Positions 8,347-63,760 of a DNA stretch of 64,000 bases are shown here, one piece after another. The translations under genes were made by a program, and so were the position numbers. Below the pieces are notes generated by a model that was not told the DNA's origin, ran no database searches, and was given only the letters and a program-made list of their open reading frames with translations. How positions within the stretch are numbered: position 1 is the first letter of the stretch; each line of letters starts with the position of its first letter. This stretch comes from Bactericera cockerelli (taxonomy: Eukaryota > Arthropoda > Insecta > Hemiptera > Triozidae), in the NCBI GenBank assembly GCA_024516035.1, contig CM044959.1:11818765-11882764 (forward strand), read 5' to 3'.

Positions 8347-8542
8347 GATCTGGTACAACTTTTCACTATTTTGTTTATACTGATCTGTTTATACTGATAA
8401 AATAGAGGTGTTAGTTGATGGCATGGATATTCAGAACTATTACCTGCTGATGAGTGCAAATAAGCTCGAAACAGCTGTCTAGGTATGTTTTGATATTCAT
8501 GTACATCTGGTACAACTTCTCACTATTCTGTTTATACTGATT
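8347..8542 (+). repeat. Hammerhead-bearing tandem repeat, about 1.2 units
   Basis: The block ATCTGGTACAACTT-TCACTAT-TGTTTATACTGAT at 8347-8383 recurs at 8505-8542, giving a unit of about 158 bp. Between the two lies a conserved segment (AAAATAGAGGTGTTAGTTGA, then the ribozyme fold). Related fragments occur at about 13406-13520 and 26985-27050. The arrangement recalls tandem hammerhead-carrying satellites, retrozymes and the terminal repeats of Penelope-like elements; no reverse transcriptase is nearby, so any mobilisation would be in trans. Confidence 0.7.
8432..8492 (+). ncRNA. Type I hammerhead ribozyme candidate with minimal stem III
   Basis: All conserved core blocks are present in order. 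CUGAUGA is at 8447-8453, GAAA at 8468-8471 and the cleavage triplet GUC at 8477-8479, predicting cleavage after 8479. Stem I pairs 8441-8446 with 8480-8485 (one G-U), then after a UAU/U internal loop 8432-8437 with 8487-8492 (one G-U). Stem II is 8454-8457 with 8464-8467, with a six-base loop and one U-U mismatch. Stem III is A8471-U8478, C8472-G8477, A8473-U8476, almost loopless, as in schistosome and Penelope-type hammerheads thought to act as dimers. The second copy at 13504 reads GAGC at the stem II 5' strand, which would pair perfectly with GCUC here, so the U-U looks like a derived mutation. Activity is inferred from the fold. Confidence 0.75.
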
Positions 8543-13405: not shown

Positions 13406-13520
13406 ACTTTCTGTTTATACCCTTTTCACTTTTCTGATCACTTTCTGTTTACCTTTAAAATAGAGAGGTTAGTTGATGACATGGATAAAAGAACTATTAT
13501 TTGCTGATGAGAGCAAATGT
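13406..13520 (+). repeat. Second copy of the hammerhead-bearing repeat, broken in stem II
   Basis: It shares CTTTCTGTTTA, AAAATAGAGAGGTTAGTTGA, ACATGGATA, AGAACTATTA and TTGCTGATGAGAGCAAAT with 8347-8460. The homology stops just inside the stem II loop and turns into AAATAAATAAAATA. The core CTGATGA is at 13504-13510, but the GAAA block, stem III and cleavage site are missing, so this copy cannot be a ribozyme. Confidence 0.6.
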
Positions 13521-21317: not shown

Positions 21318-22996
21318 ACGATGCAATATCCGAAGCAGGGCTCGACCAGAAAGGAGAAGGGGATCAGGGAGACGCGCCCAAGCAAAAGGCAGACGAAGAA
21401 TCACTTCACGGCTCAAATCCTGAGCAACGGCTTGACTGGTTCCAAAGGTATAGGTACCAGGAGATAGGCAAGGGGTCTAGAGAGACGCACCTAAGCAAAG
21501 GAGGGAAAGAGTCCAGCCCACGGATCAAAAATCTGAGAAACGGCTCGAATGATTCCAGGGGTTTAGGAATCAGGAGACGGGCAAGGGGTCTGAGGAGACG
21601 CACCCGAACCAATTAAGGACCGAGTTCAGCCCACGGCTCAATATTTTGAGCAACGGCTCGAGTGGTACCAAGGGCCTAGGCACCAGGAAACAGGCAAGGG
21701 GTCTAAAGAGACGCACCCAAGCCAAGGAGGTACAGAGTCCAGCACACGGCTCAAAATCTTGAGCAACTACGCAACATCTACCGATGGCATAGGTACAAGA
21801 AGACAGGGAAGGGGTCTAGGGAGACCGCACCCGCAAAAAGGGACAAGGTCCAGTCCACGGCTCAAAATATTGAGTGACAGCTCGACTGGTACCAGGGGCA
21901 TAGGTACCAGGAGACAGGCAAGGGGTCTAGGGAGACGCACCCAAGCCAAGCCAAGGAGGGGCAGGACCTAGTCCACGTCTCAACTTGTATCGAAGGCATA
22001 GGAACCAGGAGAAAGGCCGGGGGTCTAGGCAGACGCACCCGCAAATGGGGAGGACAAAGTCCAGTCCATGGCTCAAAATCTTGAGCAACGGCTCGACTGG
22101 AACCAAAGGCATAGGTACCGGGAGACAGGCCGGGGGTCTAAGGTGACGCACCCGCCAAAGAGGGAGGAAAAGTCAACTCCACGGATCAAATCTTCGGCAA
22201 CGGCTCGCAACTCCACGGATCAAATCTTCAGCAACGCTCGTAACTCCACGGATCAAATCTTCAGCAACGGCTCGCAACTCCACGGATCAAATCTTCAGCA
22301 ACGGCTCGACTGGTACCAAAGCCATAGGTACCAGGAGACAGGCTGGGGGTCTGGAGAGACGCACCCGCCAAAGAGGGAGGACAAAGTCAACTCCACGGCT
22401 CAAAATCTTGAGCAACGGCTCGACTGGTACCAAAGGCATAGGTACCAGGAGACAGGCCGGGGGTCAGGGGAGACGCACCCGCCAAAGAAGGAGGACAAAG
22501 TCAACTCCACGGCTCAAAATCTTGAGCAACGGCTCGACTGGTACCAAAGGCATAGGTACCAGGAGATAGGCCGGGGGTCAGGGGAGACGCACCCGCCAAA
22601 GAGGGAGGACAATGTCAACTCCACGGCTCAAATCTTGAGCAACGGCTCGACTGGTACCAAAGGCGTAGGTACCAGGAGACAGGCCGGGGGTCAGGGGAGA
22701 CGCACCCGCCAAAGAAGGAGGACAAAGTCAACTCCACGGCTCAAAATCTTGAGCAAAGGCTCGACTGGTACCAAAGGCATAGGTACCAGGAGATAGGCCG
22801 GGGGTCATGGGAGACGCACCCGCCAAAGAGGGAGGACCATGTCAACTCCACGGCTCAAAATCTTGAGCAACGGCTCGACTGGTACCAAAGGCATAGGTAC
22901 CAGGAGATAGGCCGGGGGTCAGGGGAGACGCACCCGCCAAAGAAGGAGGACAAAGTCAACTCCCCGGCTCAAAATCTTGAGTAACGGCTCGACTTG
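21318..22996. repeat. 114-bp minisatellite within the DIRS element
   Basis: About 14 units of roughly 114 bp. The core contains CACGGCTCAAAATCTTGAGC, AACGGCTCGACTGGTACCAA, GGCATAGGTACCAGGAGACA, GGCCGGGGGTC and GAGACGCACCCGCC. Units at the 3' (+) end are nearly identical and those at the left more diverged, suggesting recent expansion on the right. Near 22180-22300 a shorter unit of about 40 bp (GGATCAAATCTTCAGCAACG) is itself repeated four times. Because the unit is 38 codons, open frames cross it on both strands; these need not be genes. Confidence 0.88.
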
Positions 22997-23233
22997 TACC
23001 GAGGCACAAGGAACTCAAAACTCATGAGCCCAGGATGAAAAATCAGGAAAGATCTTACCCTGATTTCTGTAGCGCTGAAATATAACACACGGCGCGAAGA
23101 CGGACTGGAACTTATCAAAATGTCACTTGAAAATATATGGACACGGCTCGGAAACGGACCGCAAATTGATTAACTTTCACCATATAAAGACAAAATATTT
23201 TGCACAATAAATTGTTGTTACTAGGTCAAAGAT

Positions 23234-26984: not shown

Positions 26985-27050
26985 GCAGTATTCATGTAGA
27001 AGTTGTACTAGAACTTCTCACTTTTCTGTTTATACTGAGTATAAACAAGT
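26985..27050 (+). repeat. Fragment of the hammerhead-bearing repeat, no ribozyme core
   Basis: TATTCATGTA, GTACTAGAACTTCTCAC and TTTTCTGTTTATACTGA match 8494-8542, the segment just 3' of the hammerhead stem I. The ribozyme core is not part of this fragment. Confidence 0.5.
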
Positions 27051-57892: not shown

Positions 57893-60800
57893 TCATTGAT
57901 CAGCAGCATATAACTGTTTGATCGAATGAATAAAGCTGGGAGCACTCAGCGCATGTCTGATTTCAACTGGCAGCGCATTCCAAAGACGTGAAACCCGAAC
58001 ATGGAATGAATTTGTGTATGCTGAAGATCTATGACAAGGAATCTCCAAGTCTTTAGAGCTTTGAGACCTCGTATTGTATCTGCTTATATCGGATAAATAG
58101 CAGAAAGCACTGCGTAAGTACTGTGGCTTTTCTGAGCTAAGTGTTTTGAATAAGAGAGTCAGGGCGTGAAGATCACGCCGTTGATCTAATCTTATCCAAC
58201 CCAGCTGGGAATAGGAAGGTGAAACATGATCAAATTTTCGCAGATTGCACACATATCTCACACATGCATTTTGAGCCAACTCTAATTTGTGTCCTAAGTC
58301 CACACCAAATCCACCATAGACGGAGTCACAGTAGTCAAAGTGCGGAAACACGAGTGACTCAATAAGTCTTCTTTTAAGATCCATTGGGAAAATATGTTTA
58401 AATTTTCCCAATGTGTACAAACAGAAGAACACCCTCTTCCGCACATGACTAACATGATTCGTCCAGGTTAAGGAATCATCAATCAGAACTCCCAAGTTCT
58501 TAGCATCATTCACAACTGGTATAGCTGTACCGGACAGAACCAGAGGTGGCAGATTAAGGGTTGGGAGAACTGATGAACAGAAATAACGTGTTCCAAGGAT
58601 GAGTGCCTTGGATTTAGCAGGATTCGGGGACAAAAACAGTTCGCTGGCCCAACTCTGGAAAACCTCTAGCTCTCTATTCAACACACATATTGTCTCAGCG
58701 AGTTCCTCAACCAAGCAATGTGTATATATCTGAATATCGTCTGCATAGACATGGTATTTGCAAGATTTAAAGACTCGCCGGAGACCAGATATGTACAGAG
58801 AAAAAAGTAGAGGGCCCAGGACGGAACCTTGCGGGACGCCTGAAGAGATGTCTCTCCATCCAGAGACAGAGCAGCGCTGTTTAACACGCTGCCTTCGTCC
58901 TCGAAGGTAACTACCTATCCAAGACAAAGCAGACCCTGAAAAACGAAACTTGCCCAAGATTGCCAGCAATACATCAAAGTCGACGGAATCGAACGCCTTG
59001 CTCATATCCAAGAGCACCAAAATAGTCACTTTTCTGGCGTCGATTGCCAAACGAATATCGTCTGTCACTCTAAGAAGAGCAGTAGACGTGCTATGGCCTC
59101 GACGGAATCCGGATTGAACAGGGTCGAACAAGTCAAATGCTTCGATGTATTGCAAGATCTGCTGAGAAGCAACCTTTTCCAGGGCTTTAGAAAGAACTGG
59201 CAGTATTGCCACCGGGCGGAAATCGCTACAGGAGGCAGGACTTGAGACCTTATTCAAAGGTATAATCTCTGCTGATCTCCATTCCGATGGAAATACTCCA
59301 GACGTCAAGGATAGGTTAAAAATCCGTGTGATCGATGGGAGGATAAGATCCAAAGACATCCTCACCATAGAAATGTCGATTTCATCGAATCCCCTAGCCT
59401 TTGATCTGATAGCGCGAATCACTGTACTGACGGCTTCCTCCGATACCTCCTCAAAAGAGAACCACACATCAGAAGGTATGGTATCAAAAACAAAAACGTT
59501 ATTTTCAATACCATCCAGAATGGTCCTCTTAACGAGGGGGCATGGACGAGGAACTACGGACACGAAGAACTCATTCAGCTCATCCAGCCCGAAGGTGACT
59601 GGAGGAGATGACTTTAAGTTCCCGATGCCCAAGGAGTTCAATTTCCTCCAGGTAGATTTTGACCCACCCTTCAGAATGCCGCCAGCAAAGCACCGTTTCG
59701 CACGACGAACAAGGTAATTAGTACGATTCTTCTGAATCTTGTAGGCATTTTTATCATTGTCACTGCGTGATTTCTTGAATTTACTCCACAGGCGGTCTCT
59801 AAGAGCCATACTGGATTCAATTTCAGAGCTCATCCACGGAATGGGTGGACGAGTAACACGCTTCTCAACAAGCGGTGCAACCTCATCGAACACTTCCAGA
59901 AAGAACCCTGTGAAAGCACACAGTACATCATCCACAGAAGTGCCCGATGTGGTACTGTTCCAATCGACAGCAGAAAGATGATCCGACAACAGCTCATTGT
60001 CCAGCCTCCTGAGATCCCGATACCTGATATTTTGTACAGGGTACTTGGGTACCTTCACAGAGTAGGCAACATAAAGCATGTCATGCCTCGAGATCCCAGG
60101 GGTCGGTAACTGACCATAGAGCTTAACCCTCTCGGTCTGTGCAGTGAGAGTCAGATCTATCTGTGTCGATGGTCGGGCATCCAGATGGTGATGAGTGGGT
60201 CCCGAAGGAAGAACAGATAGACCAAACAATGTCAATATTTCATTCAGGCGGCAAGTTGAATGATCGGATGAATGTAAAATATTTACATTAAAGTCACCCA
60301 TAATAATTAGATGTTCATATTGACTAATTTGTTCCGTCAATAAATCCTCTAGTATGGTGAGTTCACTAACACCAACATCTGGCGCCTTATATACCACCAC
60401 AGCCAAGAGTTTTGAAAATTTCAATTTTATTTCCACCGCCATATATTCAAAACATGGATTCGAAGTGGATTCACTACACGAGACAATCTTATGAGGAAGA
60501 TCATCTCGTAAATACATCGCAACTCCACCACCTCTCCTAACGCGGTCATGCCTAACAAGTGAATACCCAGGAATGTCAACCACGCTGCTTGATAAATCGG
60601 GCTTAAGCCATGATTCACCAATAAGAACTGCATGTAAGTCCACGCCATCGACAATGGTTCTTAATTCATGTAGGTGTGGCATAACACTCTGGGCATTCAA
60701 ATGCACAGCCTTAAAACATTTAGGGAAACTTGAAAACTTGGTTTTCAAGGTTTGATTTACAGTTGCAAGAGGTTGAAGTGGAGGAGTTGTTGATGGTTGT

Positions 60801-61039
60801 GTGTGAACATTAATAGAGTTAGAGACAGGGGATGAAGAAGTAGAAGTGGAAATCATAGAAGGGGGGGAGACAGAGGATAGCGCAGCGCAAGCATCCCGAC
60901 CGTCAGAGCCAACATCCCTAATCGCGAGATCATCTGTTTCCTGAGAGTCAGGATCGAGATCTAGTGTCCCCTGCATATCCGTGGCTACAGTGCCACTTCT
61001 GTCAATATCGTTCATATCGGACGACGGTGAATGTGTCAT
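57893..61039 (-). CDS. LINE ORF2: endonuclease and reverse transcriptase, intact
   Basis: Open from 61204 to the stop at 57893 (1103 codons); the likely start is Met at 61039, 23 bases after the ORF1 stop, giving 1048 residues. Positions below count from 61204. AP-type endonuclease about 163-385: LNAQS (169), IGESWLKP (195), GDFNVNIL (303), SRHD (372). Reverse transcriptase about 640-900: DFRPVAILPVLSKALEKV (661), QSGFRRGHSTS (697), LLDMSKAFDSVD (731), SSGVPQGSVLGPLL (787), the catalytic YADD (820). There is no RNase H domain. The enzyme nicks the target and reverse-transcribes the element's RNA there. No stop or frameshift in 3.1 kb suggests recent activity, and all listed catalytic motifs look normal. 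Confidence 0.92.
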   Translation of the reverse strand: MTHSPSSDMNDIDRSGTVATDMQGTLDLDPDSQETDDLAIRDVGSDGRDACAALSSVSPPSMISTSTSSSPVSNSINVHTQPSTTPPLQPLATVNQTLKTKFSSFPKCFKAVHLNAQSVMPHLHELRTIVDGVDLHAVLIGESWLKPDLSSSVVDIPGYSLVRHDRVRRGGGVAMYLRDDLPHKIVSCSESTSNPCFEYMAVEIKLKFSKLLAVVVYKAPDVGVSELTILEDLLTEQISQYEHLIIMGDFNVNILHSSDHSTCRLNEILTLFGLSVLPSGPTHHHLDARPSTQIDLTLTAQTERVKLYGQLPTPGISRHDMLYVAYSVKVPKYPVQNIRYRDLRRLDNELLSDHLSAVDWNSTTSGTSVDDVLCAFTGFFLEVFDEVAPLVEKRVTRPPIPWMSSEIESSMALRDRLWSKFKKSRSDNDKNAYKIQKNRTNYLVRRAKRCFAGGILKGGSKSTWRKLNSLGIGNLKSSPPVTFGLDELNEFFVSVVPRPCPLVKRTILDGIENNVFVFDTIPSDVWFSFEEVSEEAVSTVIRAIRSKARGFDEIDISMVRMSLDLILPSITRIFNLSLTSGVFPSEWRSAEIIPLNKVSSPASCSDFRPVAILPVLSKALEKVASQQILQYIEAFDLFDPVQSGFRRGHSTSTALLRVTDDIRLAIDARKVTILVLLDMSKAFDSVDFDVLLAILGKFRFSGSALSWIGSYLRGRRQRVKQRCSVSGWRDISSGVPQGSVLGPLLFSLYISGLRRVFKSCKYHVYADDIQIYTHCLVEELAETICVLNRELEVFQSWASELFLSPNPAKSKALILGTRYFCSSVLPTLNLPPLVLSGTAIPVVNDAKNLGVLIDDSLTWTNHVSHVRKRVFFCLYTLGKFKHIFPMDLKRRLIESLVFPHFDYCDSVYGGFGVDLGHKLELAQNACVRYVCNLRKFDHVSPSYSQLGWIRLDQRRDLHALTLLFKTLSSEKPQYLRSAFCYLSDISRYNTRSQSSKDLEIPCHRSSAYTNSFHVRVSRLWNALPVEIRHALSAPSFIHSIKQLYAADQ

Positions 61040-61061
61040 GCGCTGTGACGCATTCGTCAGA

Positions 61062-61751
61062 CTAGATGAAAAAATTATTTCTATTATTTCTACCCCCACC
61101 CACACTGCACCCTCTCCCCCCAGGTCGCTCACTATACCTATTGCGGGAGTCATTATAGTAATTAGCATTATGGTAATCATAATCCAAGTAAAAATCATAA
61201 TCATAATGACTATCTATAAAGTCAGAGTTTACATTATTAGGGTACATGTTGGGTAAGGTAGAATTAAAGTAAACAATATCATTGTGCCTCTTTTGTCCCT
61301 GTTTCCTACGATTTTGTTTAGGTTTAGACTTAGAATACTTAACATTAGGTACAATAATATTATTAGTATTATTACTATTAAGAACATTGCTGGGACGCTT
61401 CTTTTTTATTTTCTTACTGACTCCCATCTTGTTCGCTGACTTAATCTCCACACCTTCCTTGAATAGCTCCGCCCATTGCTCAGTGAACAGATCACAAAGC
61501 TTTCTCTTCCCGAACTTGTTTAGGTGTAGTCCATCCGGTGAGTAATCTGCATTATTCAGAACAGGCTCAGGATTAAAAATGGTCACATTTTTGGAACGGA
61601 GAAAGTTTGCGATCTTCACGTTGAGACGAGAGATGTGTAGATTCAGATGATGGTCATTTCTCCTCAATGGCACCAGCACAACACCAATCTTACAAGATTG
61701 ATATTTTGATAGCAATTCCGAGTAAGCTTTCAGACAGAAATAGTCCTCACT
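61062..61751 (-). CDS. LINE ORF1 C-terminal part with SGNH/esterase end, 5' truncated
   Basis: Open from 61751 to stop TAG at 61062-61064, with no convincing Met start at the left edge, so the N-terminus is missing. KIGVVLVPLRRND and YSPDGLHLNKFGKRKL (61553 region) form the end of an SGNH/GDSL-type hydrolase fold; the Asp-x-x-His of DGLHL is the second part of the catalytic triad. The Ser and Asn/Gly blocks would be upstream and are absent. The C-terminal third is Lys/Asn/Tyr-rich and basic, probably RNA-binding. CR1- and L2-type LINEs carry such an esterase in ORF1. Overlap in another frame with the ORF2 open region is short. Confidence 0.7.
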   Translation of the reverse strand, partial: SEDYFCLKAYSELLSKYQSCKIGVVLVPLRRNDHHLNLHISRLNVKIANFLRSKNVTIFNPEPVLNNADYSPDGLHLNKFGKRKLCDLFTEQWAELFKEGVEIKSANKMGVSKKIKKKRPSNVLNSNNTNNIIVPNVKYSKSKPKQNRRKQGQKRHNDIVYFNSTLPNMYPNNVNSDFIDSHYDYDFYLDYDYHNANYYNDSRNRYSERPGGRGCSVGGGRNNRNNFFI

Positions 61752-62621: not shown

Positions 62622-63760
62622 AAATATTATAGGAACCCTTTGTTGTTGTTGCCTTTAACATTTTGTGTCGCACATATTTTTATGTATGCATTGCATAATA
62701 TATGTCCTACATTTTCAACACCAGAAAAACATCTCATTTTAATGTTTATACCGAGCGACACAAACTTTAATTTCGCGGTGGTAACAACAGCAAAAGTTTT
62801 GTTCAAACAAAGATGCGAAATGAATGAAAACACAGAGAAGCCGCGAAAAAACAAACAGCGCTCAGGTAAATTAAAACACCAGGTGTTGTGTACAAGGGAG
62901 AAATAAATTTCTCTGGAAGAACATTTAAAAGTTGGTTACCAAAAAAGAAAGAAAAGTTTCATATTTATGGTCCCTTAAAAAATGCGGCTGAAAAAATGGA
63001 CTAGTTGGGAGGAGTTAGCAGGAGTACCTAGTTAGAAACTTACAAGAATTTGAAAGAAAATGATTATGATAATAATAGCAAAAGTCAAAAGGCCTTTGCC
63101 AATACCTACTTATTATTTACCACTTAAATGTTTTTTTTTTTTTTTTTTTTTGTAAAGTATGTCATCTATATGGACCATATAAAATACATATTTTTTATGT
63201 TTTAAAAATGTTATTTTTTTATAAAGACAAAAAAATATATCTTTATATAAAAAAATATATTTATTCTACGTACATCGTCAGCGGTTTTTGGACATCCATA
63301 ATCATACTGATGGTCCGTGTATGGACAGGTTGACGTACTTTATGGCAAGATAGGAATCGGACTTCCAATTTTTCTGAAGCACTTTTATTTATTATTTTTT
63401 TTAATGTTACAAAAATGTAAATAGGGGAGACCTCGCCTCCTATGTGGCTGCAACATGCATCCTCGATTAAACGATAGGGTTCGGTGAAAGTTTTGATAGA
63501 GATATTTTTTGGCATATTTATTTATCGTATGGCTTTATTACACATCTCAAAGTGAGAAGACATGTGTACTAATCTTACTTGATCAAGAAATCTGATGGCA
63601 GTAATTGTTTGATCACCAAAATTGTCAGTACTTTAGCCGCATGTCAATGCGTTGCCCAGGGTGAACCACGAGGAGGCGTACTAACATTTCACCCCAACAT
63701 TTTTTTAACGAAGAATCAAACAAAATGCCTAGAAACAAGTAAAAGATAGGTTTAGGAAAG
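62622..63760. other. Non-coding stretch with poly-T
   Basis: No gene recognised. A 24-25-base poly-T at about 63128-63152 could be the poly-A tail of a minus-strand retrocopy, but no identifiable body follows. Several A/T-run palindromes (ATATTTTTT) occur at 63185-63260. Confidence 0.45.

What the first reader, a model, noticed from the sequence alone, without database searches (positions are those of the whole stretch)
8347..8542. Hammerhead ribozyme in a small tandem repeat, with a second, broken copy
The sequence shows CUGAUGA, stem II, GAAA, a near-loopless stem III, GUC and a two-part stem I of 12 base pairs around an internal loop, all in type I order, with predicted cleavage after 8479. 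The unit repeats at a period of about 158 bp. The copy at 13504 has GAGC at the stem II strand, which restores perfect pairing with GCUC seen at 8464, so the ancestral motif was likely a full hammerhead. Type I hammerheads with minimal stem III are known from schistosome satellites, Penelope-like elements and retrozymes; this unit has no visible RT and may be a new non-autonomous family.
Basis: partly seen in the sequence, partly recalled or inferred. Interest (0 to 1): 0.88.

Follow-up and report, generated by a model that had tools for sequence, protein, structure and literature searches.

The report
Tiny self-cutting-RNA mobile element family
This animal genome, likely an arthropod's, carries thousands of scattered whole or partial copies of a 144-letter repeat with a hammerhead motif, whose RNA is predicted to cut itself and likely to be copied back into DNA by a borrowed enzyme; the copy found here is slightly worn, and elements of this kind are already known.

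Summary
Window 8441-8485 forms a type I hammerhead (predicted cut after 8479) in a 193-bp copy (8348-8540) of one unit plus part of another. The local period is 157 bp because of a 14-bp duplication; the family unit is 143-144 bp. The window copy scores below Rfam's cut-off (26.9 vs 34 bits) and has a U-U mismatch in stem II. The genome (565 Mb, likely arthropod) holds 1,836 matches to the 33-nt core pattern and 3,098 to the 28-nt 3' tail pattern; both patterns reversed match 0 times. Sampled copies are dispersed and noncoding, have one fixed 3' end 61 nt past the cut, ragged 5' ends, often reiterated TACTGA tails, and mostly stop by the previous cut site. This is a family of animal non-LTR retrozymes, slightly below the published size range. 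The fixed internal start resembles the internal initiation reported for a Penelope-like element, which makes such an element a candidate driver; the one inspected here has no hammerhead hit and no significant sequence match. Cleavage, circles and expression are untested. New member of a known kind.

The parts
8348..8540 (+). Retrozyme copy: one full unit plus a 5'-truncated partial unit, ending at the family's fixed 3' end (...TTTATACTGA)
   Evidence: the same insertion with its flanks recurs 316 kb away (L002, 98%)
8372..8398 (+). 14-bp tandem duplication (TGTTTATACTGATC x1.9) that lengthens the local period to 157 bp
   Evidence: sampled family copies mostly have a 143-144 bp period without it
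8441..8485 (+). Type I hammerhead motif; cut predicted after 8479; U-U mismatch in stem II
   Evidence: (RF00163 26.9 bits, E 0.024, cut-off 34)
8471..8478 (+). Palindromic ACAGCUGU stem III, which could pair between two hammerheads
   Evidence: sequence
8417..8437 (+). 5' arm of the extended stem I rod
   Evidence: predicted fold
8487..8507 (+). 3' arm of the extended stem I rod
   Evidence: predicted fold
8513..8540 (+). Conserved 3' tail with the fixed end, 61 nt past the predicted cut; taken as the reverse-transcription start
   Evidence: 3,098 matches to the tail pattern genome-wide
13422..13518 (+). Second copy, cut short inside the hammerhead after CTGATGAGAGCAAAT; no second half, no fixed 3' end
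26989..27038 (+). Third copy, 5'-truncated: about the last 50 nt with the fixed 3' end

Best explanation
The feature is one worn copy of a dispersed family of 144-bp noncoding repeats of the animal retrozyme kind, whose tandem RNA is predicted to be cut by its hammerhead ribozyme and likely copied back into DNA by another element's reverse transcriptase, probably starting at a fixed site 61 nt past the cut. Inferred steps: transcripts of tandem copies cut themselves, probably best when two hammerheads share the palindromic stem III; the uncut or ring-closed product serves as template at an internal site; copying starts at ...TATACTGA, often restarts on the same few bases (giving TACTGA/TTATACTGA reiterations), and usually stops within the next unit at or before the upstream cut site. 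Shown in the sampled copies: core, fixed 3' end, ragged 5' ends, reiterated tails, size edge; shown genome-wide: pattern counts. Not shown: transcription, cleavage, circles, the enzyme.
For: 1,836 matches to the core pattern and 3,098 to the tail pattern, reversed controls 0. In 54 loci covering the first 58 places of the tail list, 53 join the tail to unit sequence; after merging loci with similar flanks there are 44 insertions, 43 of 31 to 209 nt and one of 363 (probably two neighbours bridged); 20 of the 28 loci of 100 nt or more (some sharing flanks) keep a hammerhead by stated rules. Size edge at 205 nt (61+144): 16 insertions at 145-205 nt against 1 at 206-288; in the core-chosen set 23 against 5. 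Extra tail blocks in 57 of 97 loci. Two relatives over the Rfam cut-off. Rod folds, z -3.1 to -5.3 in four sequences. Low GC (36%), no LTR, no reverse-transcriptase gene, as in PMC7229834 (sections read). A Penelope-like element with RT and GIY-YIG domains is in the genome.
Against: The window copy is below the Rfam cut-off and has a stem II mismatch. Predicted monomer folds prefer an alternative core by 6 kcal/mol in three family copies and by 10 in the window copy, so a lone copy may cut poorly. No consistent target-site duplications. No expression data. The inspected Penelope-like element has no hammerhead hit and no significant DNA match to the unit, and no other element with the same tail was found in the 10 of 105 places looked at. 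The size edge could come from the rod structure stopping the enzyme near the cut site. 8 of the 28 sampled loci of 100 nt or more fail the hammerhead rules.
Confidence: 0.88

Rival explanations
1. It is ordinary satellite or minisatellite DNA that spread by unequal exchange and segmental duplication; the hammerhead is a passenger.
For: Some copies do share flanks (L002 with the window copy; 9 of 53 tail-chosen and 3 of 40 core-chosen loci merged), and a few arrays of 3 or more units exist.
Against: Most sampled loci have unrelated flanks, one fixed 3' end and variable 5' ends, which DNA duplication does not produce; only 4 of 37 core-chosen insertions exceed two units.
Confidence: 0.05
2. A LINE, not a Penelope-like element, supplies the reverse transcriptase; short reiterated 3' tails are typical of some LINE clades (recalled).
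For: Reiterated TACTGA tails look like LINE-style stutter; the window holds a LINE with endonuclease and RT domains.
Against: That LINE appears to end in poly-A, and no element with the TACTGA tail other than the retrozyme turned up in the 10 of 105 places read. A start inside the RNA is reported for a Penelope-like element and said not to have been seen with other retrotransposons (PMC11167929).
Confidence: 0.35
3. The ribozyme plays no part in spread; the 205-nt size edge and the clustered 5' ends are reverse-transcriptase stops on the rod structure of an uncut transcript.
For: 5' ends cluster in the 3' arm of the predicted rod (unit position 83 or later in 33 of 50 loci, L122 with its unjoined tail included); few ends lie exactly at the cut (L094 does); insertion by a Penelope-like protein in vitro did not need hammerhead cleavage (PMC11167929).
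Against: 20 of 28 sampled long loci keep a hammerhead that meets the rules, which suggests that source copies need it; the number of 5' ends falls off sharply at the cut position in both samples.
Confidence: 0.3
4. Chance resemblance to a hammerhead in an unrelated repeat.
For: Window copy alone: 26.9 bits, E 0.024, under the cut-off.
Against: Family copies reach E 1.3e-5 to 7.3e-5 in a small search, still under the cut-offs; two relatives pass the cut-off; stem II is perfect in most sampled copies.
Confidence: 0.02

Closest known systems
Animal non-LTR retrozymes with type I hammerheads (Acropora, Mytilus, axolotl; PMC7229834)
   Same: Type I hammerhead in small, low-GC, noncoding tandem or partial-tandem repeats, thousands of copies, no LTR, predicted self-paired RNA; Penelope-like element present in the same genome
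   Different: Unit 143-144 nt against RNAs of about 170-400 nt (abstract) or 150-450 bp repeats (section 13); long copies mostly hold 1.0-1.4 units; fixed 3' end and 5' size edge described here; circles and cleavage not tested here
Penelope-like elements with hammerheads (PAc of Anolis, PMC11167929)
   Same: Partial-tandem copies, A+T-rich target flank, copying that starts inside the RNA downstream of the hammerhead cut (85-92 nt by my subtraction in PAc; 61 nt here); 5' truncation (recalled for such elements)
   Different: No protein gene in the unit; the Penelope-like element inspected here (L137) shows no hammerhead hit and no significant match to the unit
Plant LTR retrozymes (PMC4918200, search listing only; features from passages in PMC7761336 and PMC7229834)
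   Same: Small noncoding retroelement with hammerheads flanking a unit
   Different: Plant ones are larger, use type III hammerheads and carry LTR, primer site, polypurine tract and 4-bp duplications
Rfam RF02275 Hammerhead_HH9
   Same: Best Rfam model for four copies in two family loci (31.8 to 34.2 bits)
   Different: Below its cut-off of 52; not a member by that test

Membership tests
Type I hammerhead ribozyme (Rfam RF00163) | Score at or above the gathering score | tested here: not met
   Window copy 26.9 vs 34; L007 32.5. Relatives L012 43.0 and L013 42.3 pass
Type I hammerhead ribozyme (Rfam RF00163) | Conserved core CUGANGA, GAAA, H at the cut, three stems in type I order | tested here: met
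   Window copy with one stem II mismatch; 20 of 28 sampled loci by stated rules
Type I hammerhead ribozyme (Rfam RF00163) | Self-cleavage | not testable with these tools
   Needs transcription in vitro
Animal non-LTR retrozyme | Type I hammerhead inside small repeats, many copies | tested here: met
   1,836 matches to the core pattern
Animal non-LTR retrozyme | Repeat unit of about 150-450 bp in tandem | tested here: inconclusive
   143-144 bp, just below; copies 0.2 to about 4 units, mostly 1.0-1.4 when long
Animal non-LTR retrozyme | Low GC, no LTR, no reverse-transcriptase gene | tested here: met
   GC 36%; a 144-nt unit cannot hold such a gene; one frame of the unit happens to lack stops
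Animal non-LTR retrozyme | Target-site duplications longer than 4 bp, when present | tested here: inconclusive
   Shared flank strings of 8 nt or more in 9 of 97 loci against 2.4 expected, 7 or more in 20 against 7.4; at least four of the 9 are trivial (L087 and L099 in older repeats, L111 oligo-T, L040 tail sequence); no common length
Animal non-LTR retrozyme | Expression as linear and circular RNA | not testable with these tools
   No transcript data
Penelope-like element | RT plus GIY-YIG gene in the element | tested here: not met
   The 144-nt unit has none; present only in separate elements
tRNA/5S/7SL-derived SINE | Pol III promoter or RNA-gene head | tested here: not met
   No such Rfam hit at the unit; no A or B box by simple pattern

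The most novel reading that the evidence does not exclude
The genomic copies are a fossil record of retrozyme replication: insertions start at one internal RNA site 61 nt downstream of the ribozyme cut and end by the previous cut, so a cut-then-internally-primed module shared with Penelope-like elements is what mobilises animal retrozymes.
Probability: 0.35. Interest if true: 0.7.

Novelty: new member of a known kind. Interest (0 to 1): 0.5.

Why it matters
How animal retrozymes get back into DNA is open; PMC7229834 names Penelope-like elements or LINEs only as candidates. This family has thousands of copies with a single, sharply defined 3' start and a size edge at the ribozyme cut, so the enzyme and the state of the template can be tested directly. 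It also adds a unit slightly shorter than the ranges in that paper.

Tried and rejected
Chance motif: rejected by genome-wide counts. Satellite array: rejected by distinct flanks and the fixed 3' end. Partner by shared tail: the pattern with C or T before TTTATACTGATACTGA gave 105 matches (45+60; control 0); of 10 read, 9 carry retrozyme sequence upstream by eye (two of them, L138 and L139, near-identical) and 1 (L140) does not; no partner found. Partner by hammerhead: the Penelope-like element L137 has no hammerhead hit at E up to 5 and no significant match to the unit (best E 0.89). Window LINE as partner: appears to end in poly-A. Core pattern in viral contigs: 0. A first constrained fold did not take effect and was redone. 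The open frame of the unit: kept in 22 of 40 loci and present in 15% of shuffled units, so not distinguished from chance. Rows dropped before counts: L122 (tail not joined) in the tail set and L076 in the similarity-chosen set; L072 (another hammerhead family) and L073 (the L002 insertion again) left out of the similarity-chosen set, and L001, L003-L005 and L008 not used there because they overlap the window, L074, L075 and L076. The similarity-chosen set is biased to long, intact copies and was not used for the size edge. Four loci (L079, L086, L089, L094) are in both sets. The equal-density null is crude. Both list-based sets come from contig C1 only.

Full report
What is there. The window copy spans 8348-8540: a full unit preceded by part of another, so that 37 bp recur at its two ends (8348-8384 and 8505-8541, 35 of 37 identical, spacing 157). 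A 14-bp duplication at 8372-8398 explains why the spacing exceeds the family unit of 143-144 bp. The hammerhead lies at 8441-8485. Rfam Hammerhead_1 gives 26.9 bits, E 0.024, under the cut-off of 34. Position by position, stem I has 6 of 6 pairs, stem II 3 of 4 with a U-U mismatch, stem III 4 of 4, and the cut is predicted after 8479. Stem III is the palindrome ACAGCUGU; a hairpin of it has room for two pairs at most, but two hammerheads could share it as eight pairs (inference; dimeric action of type I motifs with a weak helix III is described in PMC7761336, passages read).

The family. The genome in which the window lies was searchable: 565 Mb in 1,032 contigs, window on C5. A search with 220 bp gave 55 matches from 40 scored of 1,221 candidates. 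The core pattern (33 nt, 3 positions degenerate) occurs 927+909 times, and the tail pattern (28 nt, 1 position degenerate) 1,515+1,583 times; both patterns read backwards occur 0 times. The genome holds 77 matches to the Chitin_bind_4 cuticle family (86 of 86 candidates scored), with none in 14 control genomes (the control genomes named are prokaryotes), so the host is likely an arthropod; this reading rests on recalled knowledge of that family.

Anatomy of copies. In 54 loci that cover the first 58 places of the tail list, all on contig C1, 53 join the tail to unit sequence; the 3' end is fixed (by the choice of the tail, and with no unit sequence running on beyond it) and 5' ends vary. In 40 loci chosen by the core instead, the same 3' end appears. 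Merging loci with similar flanks leaves 44 insertions in the tail set: 12 of 61 nt or less, 9 of 62-93, 5 of 94-144, 16 of 145-205, 1 of 206-288 (209 nt), and 1 of 363 (L149, probably bridging to its neighbour L148). In the 40 core-chosen loci, 37 distinct: 5 of 94-144 nt, 23 of 145-205, 5 of 206-288, 4 longer. The drop at 205 nt = 61 + 144 is where the upstream cut site would be; if ends were equally dense per nt, so few beyond it would have p 1.1e-5 and 1.9e-5 in the two sets, a crude null, since length may fall off anyway; but the count rises from 94-144 to 145-205 before it drops. One insertion (L094) begins exactly at the nucleotide after the cut. Two readings remain: the template's 5' end was made by the ribozyme, or the enzyme stops while melting the 3' arm of the rod. 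After the fixed end, 57 of 97 loci carry one or more extra blocks such as TACTGA, TTATACTGA or TTCTGTTTATACTGA (a lower bound, since the pattern used misses variants), as if copying restarted on the same bases. The first four bases after the tail are 72-88% A+T, part of which may be worn tail. Shared strings of 8 nt or more between the two flanks occur in 9 of 97 loci against 2.4 expected, at least four of them trivial; there is no regular target-site duplication.

Is the motif kept? Of the 28 sampled loci of 100 nt or more (some share flanks), 20 meet these rules: CUGANGA, GAAA, not G at the cut, at least 3 of 4 pairs in stems II and III and 5 of 6 in stem I; 8 do not. Of 54 RF00163 matches in the genome (74 of 85,613 candidates scored), 51 exceed the cut-off; of the 30 given as loci, two (L012, L013) are relatives of this unit over more than half of its length, the others match it over 40 nt at most or not at all and belong to other hammerhead families.

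Folding. Units fold into a long rod with z-scores from -3.1 to -5.3 (four sequences, two of them from the window copy). The best monomer fold does not form the hammerhead core: the constrained hammerhead is 6.0 kcal/mol less stable in L007, L047 and L043 and 10.0 in the window copy. Nearest-neighbour energies ignore the tertiary core, so this is only a hint that single copies are weak and tandem ones better.

How it most likely works. A non-autonomous retroelement: transcript, ribozyme cutting, possibly ring closure, then copying by a borrowed reverse transcriptase from one internal site into nicked A+T-rich DNA. Shown: structure, pattern counts, fixed 3' end, ragged 5' ends, tails. Inferred: transcription, cutting, ring closure, nicking, enzyme. 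A template with sequence on both sides of the cut is needed, since long copies run across a whole hammerhead; a ring or an uncut tandem would both do.

Which enzyme? PMC11167929 (abstract and main text read, parts 1 and 2 of 4) reports that a Penelope-like protein starts copying inside its RNA, 111-118 bp into the gene, with the hammerhead cut 26 bp into it; by subtraction 85-92 nt past the cut, against 61 here. It also reports that hammerhead mutants did not change insertion in vitro, which speaks against a need for cutting. This genome has 25 GIY-YIG matches (41 of 41 candidates scored), five in open frames of 838 aa; L137 has RT and GIY-YIG domains and a 3,597-bp tandem period. But L137 has no hammerhead hit and no significant match to the unit. 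So the link is one of geometry, not of sequence, and a LINE remains possible.

Known or new. PMC7229834 (abstract and sections 13, 14, 17 read, passages of the rest) describes animal non-LTR retrozymes in many phyla, insects and crustaceans included. This family fits, with a unit a little shorter than the stated ranges. A term search of that paper found no word beginning with truncat. Paper searches for retrozyme, hammerhead, Penelope-like, target-primed and SINE terms showed in their listings no paper on a fixed 3' start in animal retrozymes; the library is partial and most listed papers were not opened.

Noticed in passing
window 63626-63695 (-): HDV-like ribozyme (RF02682, 45.5 bits, cut-off 44) about 1.9 kb upstream of LINE frames on the same strand (EN+RT frame 57893-61213, upstream frame 61062-61751); genome-wide 26 of 35 matches exceed the cut-off (62 of 17,470 candidates scored).
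   Followed up: partly
G000 C7:17217000-17236500 (L072 holds the first 10 kb) and other loci, e.g. L015, L020: A different minimal type I hammerhead family (GCCTAACTGATGAGTTC...CGATCGTC), dispersed and in an array with steps of about 705-718 bp and longer.
   Followed up: partly
L137 and the C1, C2, C7, C10 places: Penelope-like elements with 838-aa frames, 3.6-kb tandem spacing and nearby copies on opposite strands, some near chromosome-contig ends; no hammerhead hit in L137.
   Followed up: partly
window 21357-23004: Tandem array of about 114-bp units, open over 255 aa in one frame.
   Followed up: no
unit of L067 (144 nt): 144 is divisible by three and one frame of the circle has no stop; 15% of shuffled units do the same, so not distinguished from chance.
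   Followed up: yes
L043 1088-1206: Long near-perfect inverted repeat that draws microRNA-family hits under their cut-offs.
   Followed up: no
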